Source: Propionibacteriales bacterium
Lineage (GTDB): Bacteria; Actinomycetota; Actinomycetes; Propionibacteriales; Nocardioidaceae
Reading direction: 5' to 3'
Length of the DNA stretch: 60,539 nt
NCBI GenBank assembly: GCA_025929075.1
Contig: JAICMS010000002.1
Span: forward strand, 1 to 60,539
The position numbers and the translations under genes are program-made. The notes beneath the pieces were generated by a model that saw only the letters and a list, made by a program, of their open reading frames with translations, was not told the origin of the DNA and searched no databases. Below, piece after piece: positions 21,480 through 52,314 of the stretch (its first letter is position 1; every line of letters starts with the position of its first letter).

Positions 21480-21534
21480 GCCCTTGCCGGTGGCCACCTC
21501 GGAGGACGGGGACGTCTCGCCGAGTTGGAGCGTT

Positions 21535-21548
21535 CTCCTGCGCAGGAG
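21535..21548. terminator. 14-bp palindrome after the methyltransferase gene
   Basis: CTCCTGCGCAGGAG is a perfect palindrome 56 nt after the stop of the methyltransferase. It may end the three-gene transcript. A GATAAAG further on (about 21560) could be a -10 box for the FAD oxidase gene. Confidence 0.3.
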
Positions 21549-21617
21549 GCACCTGTTCCGATAAAGAGATTCAGCAAGCCGCAGCCGCCGCGACGACTGC
21601 CCATCGGGGAGGGACCA

Positions 21618-22961
21618 ATGACAACGACCGAGAGCACCCACGAAGGCATCCTCATCGAACCAGGCGACCCACGCTGGGACGAGGCCCGGGCCGCTTGGAA
21701 CCTGGCCCTCGACCAGCAGCCGGCGGCAGTCGTCGCCGCCGGAGACGTTGAGGACGTCGTCGCGGCGGTTGCGGTGGCCCGCGACCGCGGCTGGCAGATC
21801 GCCGCCCAGAGCACCGGTCACAACGCCACCCCCCTCGGGCACCTCGCCGACACGCTCCTCGTCAAGACGGCGCCGATCAATGCCGTGAGCGTCGACGTCG
21901 AGCGGCAGCGAGCGAGGGTCGGCGGCGGGGCGATCTGGGGCGATGTCGCGATCTCCGCTGCCGCGCACGGGCTTGCTCCGCTGGCCGGGTCGTCCGCGGA
22001 CGTCGGCGTGGTCGGCTACACCCTCGGCGGCGGCCTGTCGTGGCTCGGCCGGCGGCACGGGCTGGCCTGCACCAACGTGCACGGCGTCGAGATCGTCACT
22101 CCTGACGGGGTCGTTCGTTGGGCGGACGCCGACCACGAGCCCGACCTCTTCTGGGCACTCCGCGGCGGCGGCGGAAACTTCGGCATCGTCACCGCGATGG
22201 AGATCGCGCTCTTCCCGTTGGAGACGGTCTACTCCGGCCAGCTCTTCTGGCCGCTGGAGCGTGCCGCCGACGTTCTGCCTGCCTGGCGGGATTGGGCGGC
22301 CGGGCTCTCAACGGACACGTCGACGTGCATCCGGCTGCTCCGGATGCCGCCGATGGACGAGATCCCGGAGCCGCTGCGCGGCGGCTCCTTCTTCGCGATC
22401 GAGGTGGCGCACCTCGGATCTGCTGCCGATGGGGCCGCGCTCGTCGATCCGCTGCGGGCGCTCGGGCCGGCGATGGATCTGATCGCCGAAGGGCCGGCCA
22501 CCCGGCTGATGGAGCTGCACATGGACCCGCCGCATCCCGTTCCGTACGGCGGCGGTGGCGGGCTGCTGGCCGAGCTGCCCGACGAGGCGATCGGCTCACT
22601 GCTCGACGTTGCCGGCGCCGGCCGCGACAGCAGCCTGCTCAGCGTGGAGATCCGGGCTCTCGGCGGCGCGATCGCCGAGCCGGGTGACCACCCGGCCGCC
22701 CTCGATGCGATCACCGCGCCGTACGTCGTCTTCTGCGTCGGCATGGCGCCGCCTCCCCTGGTGCCCGGCGTGCTCGCCGACGTCGACCAGACGATGGCCT
22801 CGCTCGCGCCGTGGACCGCCCTGCCGTCATACGGCAACTTCGTCGAGCAGGTCGTCGACCCGGCAACTCTGTGGGGAGCCGAGGCGCTGGCCCGGCTGTG
22901 CCAGGTGGCCGAGACCTACGACCCGGACGGGATCATGCGGGCCAACCATCCCCTTCGCTGA
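21618..22961 (+). CDS. FAD-binding oxidase (PCMH/BBE type)
   Basis: A 447-aa flavoprotein with an N-terminal FAD-binding PCMH domain and a C-terminal BBE-like tail. QSTGHNATPLG supplies the His that in this family forms the 8-alpha-histidyl FAD link; GSSADVGVVGYTLGGGLSWLGR is the flavin-binding loop and the end YDPDGIMRANHP is typical of BBE. There is no Tat-type signal peptide, so it is cytoplasmic. Such enzymes oxidise sugars, alkaloids or phenolics; the substrate is unknown. The ATG at 21618 follows GGGGAGGGA. The stop codon runs directly into a 22-bp repeat array. Confidence 0.9.
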   Translation: MTTTESTHEGILIEPGDPRWDEARAAWNLALDQQPAAVVAAGDVEDVVAAVAVARDRGWQIAAQSTGHNATPLGHLADTLLVKTAPINAVSVDVERQRARVGGGAIWGDVAISAAAHGLAPLAGSSADVGVVGYTLGGGLSWLGRRHGLACTNVHGVEIVTPDGVVRWADADHEPDLFWALRGGGGNFGIVTAMEIALFPLETVYSGQLFWPLERAADVLPAWRDWAAGLSTDTSTCIRLLRMPPMDEIPEPLRGGSFFAIEVAHLGSAADGAALVDPLRALGPAMDLIAEGPATRLMELHMDPPHPVPYGGGGGLLAELPDEAIGSLLDVAGAGRDSSLLSVEIRALGGAIAEPGDHPAALDAITAPYVVFCVGMAPPPLVPGVLADVDQTMASLAPWTALPSYGNFVEQVVDPATLWGAEALARLCQVAETYDPDGIMRANHPLR

Positions 22962-22962
22962 C

Positions 22963-23056
22963 CGGCCAAGCTTGCACCGTTGAGTGGCCAAGCTTGCACC
23001 GTTGAGCGGCCAAGCTTGCACCGTTGAGCGGCCAAGCTTGCACCGTTGAGCGGCCA
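22963..23056 (+). repeat. Array A: four 22-bp tandem repeats plus a partial copy
   Basis: Four units start at 22963, 22985, 23007 and 23029, identical but for one base (unit 2 starts T, not C); six bases of a fifth follow. Each contains CGGCCAAGCTTGC then ACCGTTGAG. The array begins one base after the FAD oxidase stop, and that TGA matches the conserved TGA of the repeat. There are no unique spacers, so it is not CRISPR. It is related to array B in inverted orientation. Confidence 0.95.
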
Positions 23057-23260
23057 GTCCCGCCCGCCTATCACCGCCACACCTCGCAGGAGCGGCGGCG
23101 GCAGGCAGGCTCAGCACGATATGGAGCGGAGCGGGGCACCTGCTGGACATGATTGACCCGTTGCGCTCCCTATCGTGAGTGAACCCGACCGTCCCAGCTC
23201 GAGGGGCGCCGAGCCGGTCAGGCAAGGCCTGAGCCCTCGGCAGGTTGGAGCTGCCCAGCA
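23057..23260. other. Non-coding spacer between the two repeat arrays
   Basis: These 204 bp hold no credible gene. One short hairpin, TCAGGC-AAG-GCCTGA at 23218-23232, is visible. No good promoter was found. Confidence 0.5.
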
Positions 23261-23348
23261 GCAACCCTGGCCGGTCAACACCGCAACCCTGGCCGGTCAA
23301 CACCGCAACCCTGGCCGGTCAACACCGCAACCCTGGCCGGTCAACAGG
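23261..23348 (-). repeat. Array B: four 22-bp tandem repeats, inverted relative to array A
   Basis: Units start at 23261, 23283, 23305 and 23327; only the last two bases of unit 4 differ. Read on the minus strand each unit contains TTGC, GTTGA and CGGCCA in the same order and spacing as array A, with 16 of 22 positions identical. The array begins six bases after the stop of the minus-strand gene. Each unit can form a small CGGT-GTTG-ACCG hairpin. Confidence 0.95.
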
Positions 23349-23354
23349 TGGGGG

Positions 23355-25205
23355 CTAGCGGTGGAGGGTGAGCGGGACGGGGCCGAGGCGGACCTGCTCA
23401 CCGGCTGCCACGTCGATGGTTCGCGGGCGGCTGGTGAGGAAGTACGGCGTGCCGTCCTCGAACGGGTAGATCACGAAGAACTTCGGTGAGGTGATCTGGT
23501 CCAGGTTGGCACCCTCGGCGAGGGTGCCCGTGACCCGACCGGCCGCCAGCCGATCGATCCGGAAGAGGCCGGACGCGCCGAACGCGCGGTCGCGCGCCGG
23601 GTGCTCGTCGGTGGGGTTGGTCGGCGAGCCCGCCGGATAGGTCAGCTCATACGACAGTTGCGTGATCAGCGGCTTGCCGTTCGACGCGTAGACCATCCGA
23701 CCAGTGACAACTCCACCTGGCTTGAGCGGCAGATCGACCTGCTTGTCGGTGTGGATGGCGACCCCACTGCGGCAGTACGGCGCGTAGTTGCCCGGATAGG
23801 CGTCCGAGCCGAGCATGTAACGTCCCGGCACCAAGCCCGTCAGCACGTAGTGGCCGGTGGCGTCCGCGCGCTCGATCTCGTGGAAGGAGCCGACCCGGAC
23901 TCGGCCTCCCGGCGGGCACATGTCGCCGGTGGTGGCCTCGACGACCGCCCGAGGGGCGGTCGTGCCGCGAAGGGTCAACGTCGGCTTGTGGAGCACCCGT
24001 GTACCGAGGTCGTAGGTCTGATGCCGCGTCACGTCGACGTGGGCTACGGCGTAGTTGGTGTCGTTGCCGGCAACAACGGTGTACCGGCCAGGGGCCAGGC
24101 CCGGATAGGTCACCCGACCGTCGAGGTTGCGCTGCCCCATGATCGGACGACCCTTGGCGTTGCGCAGCTCGTCGTCGGCACGGAGGGCGGCATGCCCGTC
24201 GGTGCGCAAGGCCAGAGTCACGACGGCGCCCCTGACGAGGGTGATCGGGGCCGATACCTGCTGGTGCGGCGCGGTCACCGACACCGGCACCGACTTGCGG
24301 ACGAAGTCGCTGCCGAAGTAGGTGATGCCGACCTGGTAGTCGCCCGGCCGCAGCCCACTCGCCCGGTAGACACCCCGCGCGTCGGTGGTCGCAGCCGCCA
24401 CAATCTTTCCGGCCGAGGTTCGCACCAGGATGTCGGTGAACGTCACCGGCTTGCCCGCCGAGGTCACGGTCCCTTCGATCGTGGCTCCGCGGCTGACGGC
24501 CCCGTCGACCTGAGCGTCCTCGCCCGGTGCCAGCGAGACGATCGGTGACCGCCACGGCAGCCACCCTTCACCGCCGGCGCCGATCCGGTACCGACCCGGC
24601 GCCAGGCCTTGGAACCGGTAGCCGCCCTGCTCGTCGGTGAAGCCGTAGAACGCGACGGTGCCGTTGAGCCGCAGCAGCCGGATCGACTGGTTGGCCGCAC
24701 CCTGGATGGTGCCGTGCACGAAGCTCTGCGGCTTGACCGTCACGCGGCCAAGATCCCTGTCCTGCGCGGCGGTCCCGAACAGCGCGGTCTGGAGCACCCA
24801 GCTGTCAGTGACGCCGGTCGGGCCGACGTAGGTGATGACATGGTCGACGCCCTGCGCGGTTTCCTTGCAGGCCTTCGGGTACGACGGCTCGGGCTGGCAG
24901 ATCTGGATCAGGTAGCCGTTCGGGCTGGCCTGCCGGACGCGAAACCGCCCGTTGTCGTCGGTGAAGTCGCGGCGGTCGGTGCGATCGGCCACGATGCCGT
25001 GCTCGGGCACCTCACGAGGGCCGACGGAGTTGACGAGGTCGCCGACAACCGGGTTGCCGGCCGCGTCGACCACGACGCCGGTGACCCAGCCGGCGTCGGC
25101 TGGTGCGTCGGCCGCCGACGCAGGCTGGATCGCGGCCATGGTGGCGGCGAGAGCGGCCGCCGTCGCGACCGCAAGTGAACGTCTGACAAAGGTGCCCTGG
25201 CTCAT
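23355..25205 (-). CDS. Secreted multi-domain carboxypeptidase regulatory-like protein
   Basis: A 616-aa predicted exported protein. Residues 1-32 are a signal peptide ending ASAADA. After this come about five or six beta-sandwich modules of the carboxypeptidase regulatory-like/CnaB type, recognisable by G-x-V-x-D-x-x-G-x-P openings and repeated G-L-x-P-G-R-Y turns (GLAPGRYRIG, GLRPGDYQVG, GLAPGRYTVV, GLVPGRYMLG). There is no LPXTG or membrane anchor at the end, so it is probably released. The ATG at 25205 has AGGAG eight bases upstream. The function is unknown; adhesion or polysaccharide binding are guesses. Its 3' end runs into repeat array B. Confidence 0.85.
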   Translation of the reverse strand: MSQGTFVRRSLAVATAAALAATMAAIQPASAADAPADAGWVTGVVVDAAGNPVVGDLVNSVGPREVPEHGIVADRTDRRDFTDDNGRFRVRQASPNGYLIQICQPEPSYPKACKETAQGVDHVITYVGPTGVTDSWVLQTALFGTAAQDRDLGRVTVKPQSFVHGTIQGAANQSIRLLRLNGTVAFYGFTDEQGGYRFQGLAPGRYRIGAGGEGWLPWRSPIVSLAPGEDAQVDGAVSRGATIEGTVTSAGKPVTFTDILVRTSAGKIVAAATTDARGVYRASGLRPGDYQVGITYFGSDFVRKSVPVSVTAPHQQVSAPITLVRGAVVTLALRTDGHAALRADDELRNAKGRPIMGQRNLDGRVTYPGLAPGRYTVVAGNDTNYAVAHVDVTRHQTYDLGTRVLHKPTLTLRGTTAPRAVVEATTGDMCPPGGRVRVGSFHEIERADATGHYVLTGLVPGRYMLGSDAYPGNYAPYCRSGVAIHTDKQVDLPLKPGGVVTGRMVYASNGKPLITQLSYELTYPAGSPTNPTDEHPARDRAFGASGLFRIDRLAAGRVTGTLAEGANLDQITSPKFFVIYPFEDGTPYFLTSRPRTIDVAAGEQVRLGPVPLTLHR

Positions 25206-25305
25206 AAGTGATCTCCTAGAGGGCCACCCACCCACTGGGCGGCCGAGAAGGTCCGGAGAGCCTAGCCGACCGATCGCCTGAGACAAACCCGGTTGCCGGC
25301 CGGCC

Positions 25306-28029
25306 TCAGTGGCCCGCCTCGTGCCAGCTGCGGCCGACCCCAACAGAGACCTCCAGCGGCACCTGCAGGGACGCAGCCGCGCCCATCTCGCGGCGGACCA
25401 ACGCCTCTAGGGCGTCCCGCTCACCCGCAGCCACCTCGAACACGAGCTCGTCGTGGACCTGGAGCAGCATCCGCGACCGCATACCCTCCCCGCCCAGTGC
25501 AGCGGCTACCCGCAGCATCGCGACCTTGATGATGTCAGCCGCCGACCCTTGGATCGGCGCATTGAGCGCCATCCGCTCGGCCATCTCGCGACGCTGCCGG
25601 TTGTCGCTGGTGAGGTCGGGAAGGTAGCGGCGGCGGCCGAGGATCGTCTCGGTGAAGCCCGTCCGTCGGGCCTCCTCCACGACGCCGTACAGGTAGTCAC
25701 GCACCCCGCCGAACCGCTCGAAGTACTCGTCCATCAGCACCCGGGCCTCCGACGTCTCGATCCCCAGCTGCTGGCTCAGCCCGAAGGCCGACAGCCCGTA
25801 GGCGAGGCCGAAGTTCATCGCCTTGATCTTCGAGCGCTGGGGCCCGCTGACTTGCTCCGCCGGGATGGCGAAGACCCGCGACGCGGTGACGGAGTGGAAG
25901 TCCATCCCGCTGCGGAACGCCGCGATCAGTCCGGCATCGTCGGACAGGTGGGCCATGATCCGCATCTCGATCTGGCTGTAGTCGGCGGTCAGCAGGCAGT
26001 CGAAGCCCGCACCGACGACGAAGGCCTCACGGATGCGGCGGCCCTCGTCGGTGCGGATCGGGATGTTCTGCAAGTTGGGCTCGGTCGAGGACAGCCGGCC
26101 CGTGGCCGCGATCATCTGGTTGAACGTCGTGTGGATGCGGCCGTCATCCGAAACCGTCTTGAGCAGGCCCTCGACGGTCTGGCGCAGCCGGCTCGCGTCT
26201 CGATGGACAAGCAGGTGCTGCAGGAAGGGATGCTCGGTCTTGTCGTACAGCGCCTGCAGAGCATCAGCATCGGTGGTGTAGCCGGTCTTTGTGCGCTTGG
26301 TCTTCGGCATGGCGAGCTCGTCGAAAAGCACGACCTGCAGCTGCTTGGGCGAGCCGAGGTTGATCTGCTTTCCGATCACGGAGAACGCGTCGTCCTCGGC
26401 CTGCTTCACCCGGCCGGCGAACTGCGCCTCCAACGAGGTCAGATGGTCGACGTCGACGCCGATGCCGTGCTGCTCCATCTCGGCCAGCACCCCGACCAGC
26501 GGCAGCTCGACATCGGTGAGCAGCTGAGCTCCGCCGCGCACCTGCAGCTCGGTCCCCAGTGCCGCAGCCAGGTCGACCACTGCATGTGCCTTGGCCATCG
26601 CCTCCTCGGCTGCGGTCGAGCCGCCGTCGATGTCGAACGACAGCTGGTCGGGGGCCGAGGGCGCCCCGGACAGCTCGCGGTGGAGATAGCGCAACGTGAG
26701 GTCGGCCAGGTCGTAGGAGCGCTGGTCGGGATGAGACAGGTACGCCGACAGGGCGGTGTCTGCCGCGAGGCCGGCCAGCGGCAGACCGCGCGCCTCCAGA
26801 GCGAGCATCGGCCCCTTGGCATCGTGCAGCGCCTTGGGACGCTCGGGGTCGGCCAGCCAGTCGGCCAGCACCTGCTCGTCGGCCGGGTCGAGGTCGACGG
26901 CCGACACCCAACCGGCGACGCCGGCCCCGGATGCGAGCGCGATCAGGTCTACCGCCCCGGTGCCCGCCGCCCAGGTGCCCGCGACGTGCACCCCGGTCAG
27001 CTGACCGGCGCCGGCATGCTCGGCCAACCAGGCCGCCACCTCGCCGGTGCCGAGCCTGGCGCCCTCGACGGTCGCGGCGGGGGCGATCTCGGGCTCGTCA
27101 GCCGACAGAGTCGCGAACAGTCGGTCACGCAGCACCCTGAACTCGAGACTGTCGAAGACCTGGTGCACCTCGTCGCGGTCCCACGGCCGGATCTCGAGGT
27201 CGTCGACGCTGCAACCGAGATCCAGGTCGCGGACGAGTCCGTTGATCCGGCGGTTCCTGATCACGTCGGCAAGGTGCTCGCGCAGGGAGTCGCCGGCCTT
27301 GCCGGTGATTTCGTCGACGTGCGCGACGATCTCATCTAGCGTGTGGTAGGTGGCGATCCACTTCGCCGCCGTCTTGGGCCCCACCCCGGGCACTCCGGGC
27401 AGGTTGTCGCTGCTCTCACCGACCATGGCGGCCAGGTCGGGGTAGTCGGCCGGCGCGACGCCGTACCGTGCCTGCACTTCCGCCGGATCGATCCGGGCCA
27501 GGTCGGAGACGCCCTTGCGCGGGTAAAGGACCGTCACGGAGTCGCTGACGAGCTGGAATGCGTCGCGGTCACCGGTGCAGATCAGCACCTCGAAGCCGCC
27601 CTCGGCAGCCCGGGTCGCGAGCGTCCCGATCACGTCGTCCGCCTCGTAACCGTCCTTCTCGACGGTGGTCACCCGCAGCGCAGCGAGCACCTCCTTGACC
27701 AGCGAGACCTGGCCCTTGAACTCGTCGGGTGTCTTGGTCCGGTTCGCCTTGTAGTCGGAGTACTCGGCGGCCCGGAAGGTGTCTCGTGACACGTCGAACG
27801 CGACGGCGAGGTGGGTCGGCATCTCATCGCGGAGGACGTTGATCAGCATCGACGTGAAGCCGTACACGGCATTGGTCGGCTGACCGGTCGAGGTGGAGAA
27901 GTTCTCGACGGGCAGGGCGTAGAAGGCGCGGTACGCGAGCGAGTGGCCGTCGAGGAGCAGCAGCCGGCCGCGGGACTTCTCGTCGGTGATGGAAGGTGCC
28001 GCTGTGGCTGTCGAGGGCGCCGCTGCCAT
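25306..28029 (-). CDS. polA: DNA polymerase I
   Basis: A 907-aa family A polymerase for Okazaki fragment processing and repair. The N-terminal 5'-3' exonuclease shows LLLLDGHSLAYRAFYAL, FDVSRDTFR, ADDVIGTLA and the GVPGVGPKTAAKW hairpin. The middle exonuclease-like domain lacks the acidic 3'-5' exonuclease residues, as in other actinobacterial PolA. The polymerase core has DYSQIEMRIMAH, RSKIKAMNFGLAYG and LLQVHDELVFE. The ATG at 28029 has AAGG directly before it, an unusually short spacing, and may be read from a short leader. It is divergent from the thioesterase gene with only 89 bp between them. Confidence 0.96.
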   Translation of the reverse strand: MAAAPSTATAAPSITDEKSRGRLLLLDGHSLAYRAFYALPVENFSTSTGQPTNAVYGFTSMLINVLRDEMPTHLAVAFDVSRDTFRAAEYSDYKANRTKTPDEFKGQVSLVKEVLAALRVTTVEKDGYEADDVIGTLATRAAEGGFEVLICTGDRDAFQLVSDSVTVLYPRKGVSDLARIDPAEVQARYGVAPADYPDLAAMVGESSDNLPGVPGVGPKTAAKWIATYHTLDEIVAHVDEITGKAGDSLREHLADVIRNRRINGLVRDLDLGCSVDDLEIRPWDRDEVHQVFDSLEFRVLRDRLFATLSADEPEIAPAATVEGARLGTGEVAAWLAEHAGAGQLTGVHVAGTWAAGTGAVDLIALASGAGVAGWVSAVDLDPADEQVLADWLADPERPKALHDAKGPMLALEARGLPLAGLAADTALSAYLSHPDQRSYDLADLTLRYLHRELSGAPSAPDQLSFDIDGGSTAAEEAMAKAHAVVDLAAALGTELQVRGGAQLLTDVELPLVGVLAEMEQHGIGVDVDHLTSLEAQFAGRVKQAEDDAFSVIGKQINLGSPKQLQVVLFDELAMPKTKRTKTGYTTDADALQALYDKTEHPFLQHLLVHRDASRLRQTVEGLLKTVSDDGRIHTTFNQMIAATGRLSSTEPNLQNIPIRTDEGRRIREAFVVGAGFDCLLTADYSQIEMRIMAHLSDDAGLIAAFRSGMDFHSVTASRVFAIPAEQVSGPQRSKIKAMNFGLAYGLSAFGLSQQLGIETSEARVLMDEYFERFGGVRDYLYGVVEEARRTGFTETILGRRRYLPDLTSDNRQRREMAERMALNAPIQGSAADIIKVAMLRVAAALGGEGMRSRMLLQVHDELVFEVAAGERDALEALVRREMGAAASLQVPLEVSVGVGRSWHEAGH

Positions 28030-51535: not shown

Positions 51536-52314
51536 TCCAAGCACAGTGTCGCACGGGGAAACGCCTGCAGCCGCATCTTGCCGATCGGGCGTCCGCAGGA
51601 CTCGCACACGCCGTAGGTGCCGTCCTGAATGCGCTGCAGAGCCTCCTCGACCAGTACGAGGTTGTCCCGGGCGTTCTTCGCCATCGTCATCTCGTGGTCG
51701 CGCTCGAACGTGTTGGAGCCGACGTCGGCCTGGTCGTGTCCGGCCCCCTCGCCGCCCTCGCGGAGCAGGTGGCTGATCTCCTCCTCAGCGGCGGCGATCT
51801 CCTCACGCAGCCGGTTACGGTCGTGTTCGAGCATCTCGGTGACGTCGGCGACCTCGCGTGCGGTCCACGGCTTCTCGCCTTCCCGGACGGCGAGACGCGC
51901 CACGTTGCGCGGCGCCGAGGTCTTGGCCGCAGCCTTGGTCGAGGCAGGCTTGGTGGAGGCAGCCCGCTTTGCCGGCGCCGCCTTCGCAGGAGCCTTCTTG
52001 GCGGTTGGGGCCGGACCCTTCTTGGCCGGACCCTTCTTGACCGCAGCCTTCTTGGCCGGACTCTTCTTGGCCGCAGCCTTCGTGGCCGCAGCCTTCGTGG
52101 CGGGAGCCTTCTTGGTCGGGGCCTTCTTCGCCACAGCCTTCTTCGCTGCTGGCGCGGCCTTCTTCGCGGTCGCCTTCTGGGCTGGAGCCGCCGCGCGCTT
52201 GCTGCTGCTTGCCCGCTTGGCGCCGTCGCTGCCGACGGTCCGCGACCGACGGTCGGCGGCTGACACCACGGCATTCTCGACGACCGTCGCGGCCGACGTC
52301 TTCTTGGCAGCCAT
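51508..52314 (-). CDS. DksA/TraR zinc-finger protein with histone H1-like tail
   Basis: A 268-aa protein in two parts. Residues about 30-145 are very rich in Lys, Ala and Pro with many KKAPAKK-like units, like histone H1 or mycobacterial HupB tails. Residues about 150-268 form a coiled coil and a C4 zinc finger (CESC and CLEC) of the DksA/TraR type, which binds the RNA polymerase secondary channel. The tail should bind DNA. ATG 52314 has GGGAAGG eight bases upstream. It is the first gene before lspA and is divergent from ileS. Confidence 0.88.

What the first reader, a model, noticed from the sequence alone, without database searches (positions are those of the whole stretch)
22963..23348. 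Two related 22-bp repeat arrays, each directly after a stop codon and in the same sense as its gene
Array A has four near-perfect 22-bp units starting one base after the FAD oxidase stop; its TGA even fits the repeat. Array B has four units of a different 22-mer starting six bases after the stop of the convergent secreted-protein gene. Read in the direction of its own gene, each unit has TTGC, GTTGA and CGGCCA in the same order and spacing, 16 of 22 positions agreeing. Both transcripts would thus carry the same kind of repeated 3'-UTR. Equal period, equal copy number and fixed orientation argue against chance. Possible roles: an unusual U-less terminator or RNA-processing element, a protein-binding array with two-turn phasing, or a repeat family that expands behind stop codons. 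Read-through RNA could fold A against B.
Basis: partly seen in the sequence, partly recalled or inferred. Interest (0 to 1): 0.75.

Follow-up and report, generated by a model that had tools for sequence, protein, structure and literature searches.

The report
Stop-anchored 22-bp repeat arrays
Two short repeat arrays behind two neighbouring genes belong to a genome-wide family of 22-base repeats that sits in a fixed direction right behind gene ends, and related actinobacteria carry the same architecture with different repeat letters, which suggests an undescribed kind of transcript-end element.

Summary
Arrays A (22957-23056, +) and B (23268-23345, -) are two of 43 arrays (2-9 units, all period 22) in this 2.69-Mb MAG, probably Nocardioidaceae. 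The core motif has 140 matches, none for the reversed control. 'Directly behind the stop, in its gene's sense' holds for about half: when the 5' neighbour is co-oriented, its stop lies within 27 nt in 22/23 cases; 17 arrays are antisense or in divergent regions. Sense stop-anchoring exceeds random placement (20/35 against 9.4, P<0.0002). Arrays under 3 kb apart always point inward (10/10). The exact motif was absent from 396 other genomes of the order, but relatives in several other genera carry families with other unit sequences and the same architecture: mostly period 22, 1-12 nt behind stops, inward-pointing pairs. Core positions diverge 3.6% between arrays, variable ones 51%, so the core is under selection. 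Most of this genome's arrays have no pairing partner, so RNA hairpins are not the common basis. Best reading: polar 3'-end boundary elements recognised by an unidentified sequence-specific factor. Mechanism unproven; mobile-repeat and giant-hairpin readings remain open.

The parts
22957..23056 (+). Array A: five 22-bp units (first one partial, carrying the stop codon), unit GTTGAGCGGCCAAGCTTGCACC
23268..23345 (-). Array B: four 22-bp units GTTGACCGGCCAGGGTTGCGGT, read on the minus strand, pointing towards array A (TRF boundaries 23261-23346)
21525..22961 (+). ORF of FAD-binding oxidase (PF01565) whose stop TGA at 22959-22961 is part of array A
23355..25343 (-). ORF of convergent secreted protein with carboxypeptidase-regulatory-like domains (PF13620); stop 9 nt before the first unit of array B
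22947..22956 (+). C-rich, G-poor 5' flank of array A (coding 3' end of the oxidase)
23346..23354 (-). C-rich, G-poor 5' flank of array B between stop and first unit
23057..23260 (.). Spacer between the two inward-pointing arrays; holds a GC-rich inverted repeat (about 23208-23241) without a U tract
   Evidence: inverted repeat read from the sequence

Best explanation
The arrays are direction-dependent 3'-end boundary elements of transcription units. Shown here: one array is 2-9 units of a non-palindromic 22-bp unit behind a C-rich stretch; in about half the cases it lies in the sense of the upstream gene directly behind (or containing) its stop codon; neighbouring arrays point at each other; the core of the unit is under strong constraint while other positions drift; the same architecture with other unit sequences occurs in relatives. 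Inferred: an unidentified sequence-specific factor recognises the unit, on the DNA or on the nascent RNA of the sense strand, with several copies for avidity, and thereby ends, shields or processes transcripts coming from the 5' side. Inward-pointing pairs would then fence a stretch against transcription from both sides, including antisense transcription, which is the proposed reason for the arrays behind antisense or divergent neighbours. Where two arms lie close they can also pair into a long, periodically mismatched hairpin, but this cannot be the general basis in this genome.
For: Genome-wide family, 43 arrays. Sense arrays within 27 nt of a stop in 22/23, above random placement, P<0.0002; the same in G004 (26/27 between -42 and +12, one at 31; 23/40 against 13.7 expected, P=0.0002) and 6-7 nt in most G005 sense arrays. 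Inward-pointing neighbours 10/10 (<3 kb) and 16/16 (<300 bp, G004). Core divergence 3.6% against 51% at variable positions implies recognition. Positions 6 and 15 show no covariation, so no unit hairpin. Array-bearing gene ends lack strong hairpins within 200 nt of the stop (0/21) against 21/64 convergent controls, Fisher P=0.001. C-rich 5' flank in both classes, 56-60% C and 13-21% G, against 35-47% C in controls. Polar asymmetric sites that stop elongation only in one orientation exist: mycobacteriophage stoperators (PMC9283540).
Against: 17 of 43 arrays do not follow a co-oriented gene, and for these the blocked transcript is hypothetical. Only about 43 arrays for a genome of this size, so it is not the general terminator. 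No RNA data, no candidate protein identified. The hairpin-depletion result is partly a space effect, because the array occupies much of the tested 200 nt; in the first 80 nt it is weaker (1/21 against 18/64, P=0.03).
Confidence: 0.4

Rival explanations
1. A selfish, mobile or slippage-driven extragenic repeat family (MITE- or REP-like). It spreads or expands into intergenic space; every unit carries a TGA that reaches all three frames within three units, so in forward sense it can only be tolerated at ORF ends, which produces the stop-anchoring.
For: Rapid turnover: units are homogenised within arrays (76% against 49% at variable positions), and C3 and C103 look like two alleles of one array with 7 and 8 units. 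Unit sequence turns over between genera. Six sense arrays have supplied the gene's stop codon. The stop-in-all-frames argument was made for TAACTGA repeats (PMC4679880). Multiple 23-25-bp direct repeats do occur beside IS21-type genes in relatives.
Against: Constraint on the core while other positions are saturated is not expected of decaying insertions. No Y1/RAYT transposase in eight array-bearing genomes and no IstB in G000 or G004; direct repeats beside IS21-type genes in relatives have other sequences. Tolerance at ORF ends does not explain why sense arrays almost never lie 30-200 nt behind a stop. Partner arrays are not similar, as ends of one element would be.
Confidence: 0.33
2. A giant imperfect RNA hairpin: two inward-pointing arrays pair into a long stem that acts as a bidirectional terminator or as a 3'-end stabiliser, as proposed for REP pairs.
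For: Window A/B folds at -221.8 kcal/mol, z -7.3; a G004 pair at -156 kcal/mol, z -14.1, with a regular mismatch pattern. In G004, 15 pairs have an 18-31 bp centre, and convergent and after-stop sites dominate. Non-array convergent ends often have strong hairpins instead.
Against: In this genome only 6 of 40 testable arrays have a pairing partner within 400 nt. Partner arms are less complementary than random arms: G004 0.576 against 0.646, no shuffle as low, significant at positions 4, 7 and 8; own pairs 0.37 against 0.47, P=0.055. A hairpin would form equally with the arms the other way round, yet only one order is seen.
Confidence: 0.17
3. A DNA-level binding array for a nucleoid or topology protein (gyrase, a NAP, a segregation factor) that uses gene ends, where supercoils collect, as landing sites; 22 bp gives about two helical turns.
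For: Fixed 22-bp phasing in several genera and preference for convergent regions; BIMEs are known protein-binding arrays (abstract of PMC2817692).
Against: Does not require the sense polarity relative to stop codons. Other periods (21, 26 and longer) occur in some genomes. No binder identified.
Confidence: 0.08

Closest known systems
REP/BIME elements with RAYT (Y1) transposases
   Same: Extragenic, high copy, enriched between convergent and behind co-directional genes, units in opposite orientation that can fold into larger structures (PMC3733652)
   Different: Units here are not palindromic (no covariation), form head-to-tail 22-bp arrays, are oriented to stop codons and point inward, and no Y1/RAYT gene is present
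TAACTGA direct repeats of Beggiatoaceae, cyanobacteria and Bacteroidetes
   Same: Intergenic tandem direct repeats with fixed orientation to genes and stops in all frames (PMC4679880)
   Different: 7-bp unit, placed mostly just before start codons; here 22 bp, placed just behind stop codons, often in inward-pointing pairs
Stoperators of cluster A mycobacteriophages (L5 type)
   Same: Asymmetric sites in short intergenic gaps whose orientation follows transcription and is needed to stop elongation (PMC9283540)
   Different: Single 13-bp sites in phage genomes with a known repressor; here tandem 22-bp arrays on a chromosome beside ordinary metabolic genes, no binder known
IS21-family ends with multiple direct repeats
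   Same: Direct repeats of 23-25 bp occur beside IS21-type genes in relatives
   Different: Different repeat sequence, and no IstB gene in the window's genome or in G004

Membership tests
REP/BIME | 20-40 bp palindromic unit (stem-loop) | tested here: not met
   No covariation of the candidate pair 6/15; arrays at gene ends fold no better than shuffles
REP/BIME | Associated RAYT/Y1 transposase in the genome | tested here: not met
   PF01797 absent from G000, G004, G005, G136, G433, G419, G020, G012; MAGs are incomplete
REP/BIME | Extragenic, behind genes, opposite-orientation pairs | tested here: met
Intrinsic terminator | GC hairpin followed by U tract | tested here: not met
   Array RNA not more folded than shuffles in 21 cases; no U tract in the units
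Polar roadblock sites (stoperators) | Asymmetric site oriented with transcription in intergenic gaps | tested here: inconclusive
   22/23 arrays with a co-oriented 5' gene sit at its stop, but 17 arrays are not behind a co-oriented gene
Polar roadblock sites (stoperators) | Cognate DNA-binding protein that halts RNA polymerase | not testable with these tools
   No binding or expression data
IS21-derived MITE | Parent IstA/IstB element with the same end repeats | tested here: not met
   No IstB in G000 or G004; direct repeats beside IS21-type genes in relatives differ in sequence
Known structured RNA (Rfam) | Match to an Rfam family at array loci | tested here: not met
   Only tRNA in the window and a TPP riboswitch elsewhere in a G004 locus

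The most novel reading that the evidence does not exclude
A chromosomal, sequence-specific transcript-boundary system in Nocardioidaceae in which an unknown protein and its 22-bp site co-evolve: the site's letters change from genus to genus, while period, polarity, position behind the stop codon and inward-pointing pairing are kept, and paired arms are held mismatched at set positions.
Probability: 0.22. Interest if true: 0.85.

Novelty: new variant of a known kind. Interest (0 to 1): 0.62.

Why it matters
In the literature searched here, tandem extragenic repeats are described before start codons or as palindromes. A polar tandem family that marks the ends of genes, keeps its architecture while its sequence turns over between genera, and is found where hairpin-type gene ends are missing would point to an undescribed way of ending or protecting transcripts in high-GC actinobacteria, where U-tract terminators are rare (own knowledge). 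It gives a direct search key (22-nt period behind stop codons) and cultivable test organisms if G004-like genomes include isolates.

Tried and rejected
Unit hairpin: rejected, positions 6 and 15 independent. General A-with-B hairpin: only 6/40 testable arrays in this genome have a partner. Exclusive 3'-UTR position: rejected, neighbours of the exceptions verified by Pfam. Terminal inverted repeats of one element: partners not similar. IS21 MITE and REP/RAYT. Phage origin: two-unit pattern absent from viral contigs. Rfam: nothing. Survey of random stretches of 20 relatives found only G004 and G005, but sampling was thin. Phylum-wide pattern: one hit (L316) looks like a TetR-type operator before an MFS gene and was set aside (own reading of the sequence); the other (L315) has the C-rich tract and two-unit layout. 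R2 in a class-wide draw of 247 genomes found only family members. Sequence strings in the literature: no relevant paper. Common descent of this genome's unit with the GAGnGGTCACT group is only suggestive: P=0.012 to G136, 0.032 to G419, 0.073 to G004; G005 not related by this test except to G136, P=0.017.

Full report
CHECK OF THE OBSERVATION. Tandem Repeats Finder finds array A at 22959-23056 (period 22, 4.5 copies, 96%) and array B at 23261-23346 (period 22, 3.9 copies, 100%). Read in the sense of its own gene, the units are GTTGAGCGGCCAAGCTTGCACC (A) and GTTGACCGGCCAGGGTTGCGGT (B). Two details differ. The oxidase's stop codon TGA is itself part of the first, partial unit of A. The first unit of B begins 9 nt behind the stop of the convergent gene.

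A GENOME-WIDE FAMILY. The pattern TTGCNNNGTTGANCGGCCA has 79 exact and 140 one-mismatch matches in the window's own genome (2.69 Mb, 224 contigs, 94% complete); the reversed control has none. A sequence model built from the units gave the full list, and 43 arrays of 2-9 units were read in context. C3 and C103 probably hold two alleles of one array: identical flanks, 7 against 8 units, different unit order. Every array has period 22. The unit is GTTGA-S-CGGCCA-R-G-S-TTGC-NNN. Array-weighted, positions 5, 8-12 and 16-19 are 96-100% conserved, while positions 6, 13, 15 and 20-22 are free or two-valued. Between arrays, core positions differ in 3.6% of comparisons and variable positions in 51%. Units are alike within an array (76% at variable positions) but not between arrays (49%) or between neighbouring partners (37%). 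So arrays grow by local duplication, and the core is held by selection.

POSITION AND POLARITY. Genes were called with a codon model trained on this genome, and the neighbours of exceptional arrays were confirmed by Pfam matches on the predicted strand. Where the gene on the 5' side of an array has the same sense (23 arrays), its stop lies between -27 and +27 nt of the first unit in 22; in six the stop codon is a TGA of the array itself. Random placement of arrays in the same gaps gives 9.4 such cases among 35; 20 are seen (P<0.0002). But 17 arrays have an antisense 5' neighbour: antisense between co-directional genes, or in divergent promoter regions. Arrays less than 3 kb apart always point at each other (10 of 10). 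The 10 nt before the first unit are C-rich and G-poor in both classes (56-60% C, 13-21% G), against 44-47% C and 29-33% G behind ordinary stops and about 35% C before starts. Array-bearing gene ends have no strong hairpin within 200 nt of the stop (0 of 21), whereas 21 of 64 other convergent ends do (Fisher P=0.001); in the first 80 nt the contrast is weaker (1 of 21 against 18 of 64, P=0.03).

RELATIVES. The exact unit was not found in 396 other genomes of the order, even as two adjacent units with three mismatches, nor in viral contigs. However, tandem-repeat scans of stretches from relatives turned up other 22-bp families. In G004 the unit is GCCGAGAGGTCACTCCCTGACC; the 40 arrays read start 1-12 nt behind the stop or contain it in 26 of 27 sense cases, and 16 of 16 neighbouring arrays closer than 300 bp point inward. 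In G005 the unit is TCCGGCGGTTCTGCTGGTGCCG, mostly 6-7 nt behind stops, again in inward pairs. A model of the G004 family found related arrays in further genera (G433 17 matches, G419 8, also G012, G418, G009, G020, G136), most with a 22-nt period, some with longer periods. These share a sense core GAGnGGTCACT, with strong statistical similarity (mostly P<0.005). The window's unit resembles this group only weakly (P=0.012 to G136, 0.032 to G419, 0.073 to G004), so common descent is suggested, not shown. A class-wide draw of 247 genomes found the G004-type model only within the family. One genome outside the class has two such units behind a C-rich tract (L315).

HOW IT MIGHT WORK. The window pair folds A against B (z -7.3), and a G004 pair makes a long stem with a regular mismatch pattern (z -14.1). 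This cannot be the common basis here, because only 6 of 40 testable arrays have a pairing partner within 400 nt. Paired arms are also less complementary than shuffled arms in G004 (0.576 against 0.646, none of 2000 shuffles as low), mainly at positions 4, 7 and 8; own pairs lean the same way (P=0.055). This may reflect instability of long perfect palindromes (own knowledge). What all arrays share is a constrained, asymmetric unit, several copies, and, where a co-oriented gene precedes, a fixed place at its end. I therefore favour a polar boundary element bound by a sequence-specific factor, on DNA or nascent RNA, that ends or protects transcripts coming from its 5' side. Inward-pointing pairs would fence a stretch against both strands. 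The factor and the effect on transcription are inferred.

COMPARISON. REP/BIME elements share the extragenic 3' position and opposite-orientation pairs (PMC3733652), but their palindromic unit and RAYT gene are not found here. TAACTGA repeats are polar tandem repeats, but mostly before start codons (PMC4679880); their authors' argument that forward repeats with stops in all frames survive only at ORF ends also applies here and supports the mobile-repeat rival. Stoperators are the closest functional parallel (PMC9283540). No paper found in the held library describes this family.

LIMITS. The genome is a fragmented MAG, and several arrays lie at contig ends. Gene calls are simple. The G004 loci were chosen because they contain arrays. 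The search of relatives was partial. No expression data exist.

Noticed in passing
L104 62-205 and L118 9-174: Two contigs (C3, C103) share both flanks of one array but carry 7 and 8 units in different order: probably strain alleles in the metagenome, i.e. a fast-evolving VNTR.
   Followed up: partly
G004 loci L275-L293: Partner arms of inverted arrays are significantly anti-matched, chiefly at positions 4, 7 and 8 of the unit, giving regularly mismatched long stems.
   Followed up: partly
L302 (G064), L300 (G444), L301 (G020): Related repeats with longer periods (26 in G020, about 30 or more in the others) and, in G064, a very long intergenic array.
   Followed up: no
L315 around 1480-1550: Two 21-bp units CCGAGCGGTCACTTCTTGTTC (minus strand) behind a C-rich tract in a genome of another class of the phylum, same layout as the Nocardioidaceae arrays.
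   Followed up: partly
window 52009-52143: Coding-type 15-bp tandem repeat (9 copies, period a multiple of three), possibly a lysine/alanine-rich protein tail; unrelated to the arrays.
   Followed up: no
G288: The reversed control pattern matched five times in this one genome, which may hold an unrelated tandem repeat of similar make-up.
   Followed up: no
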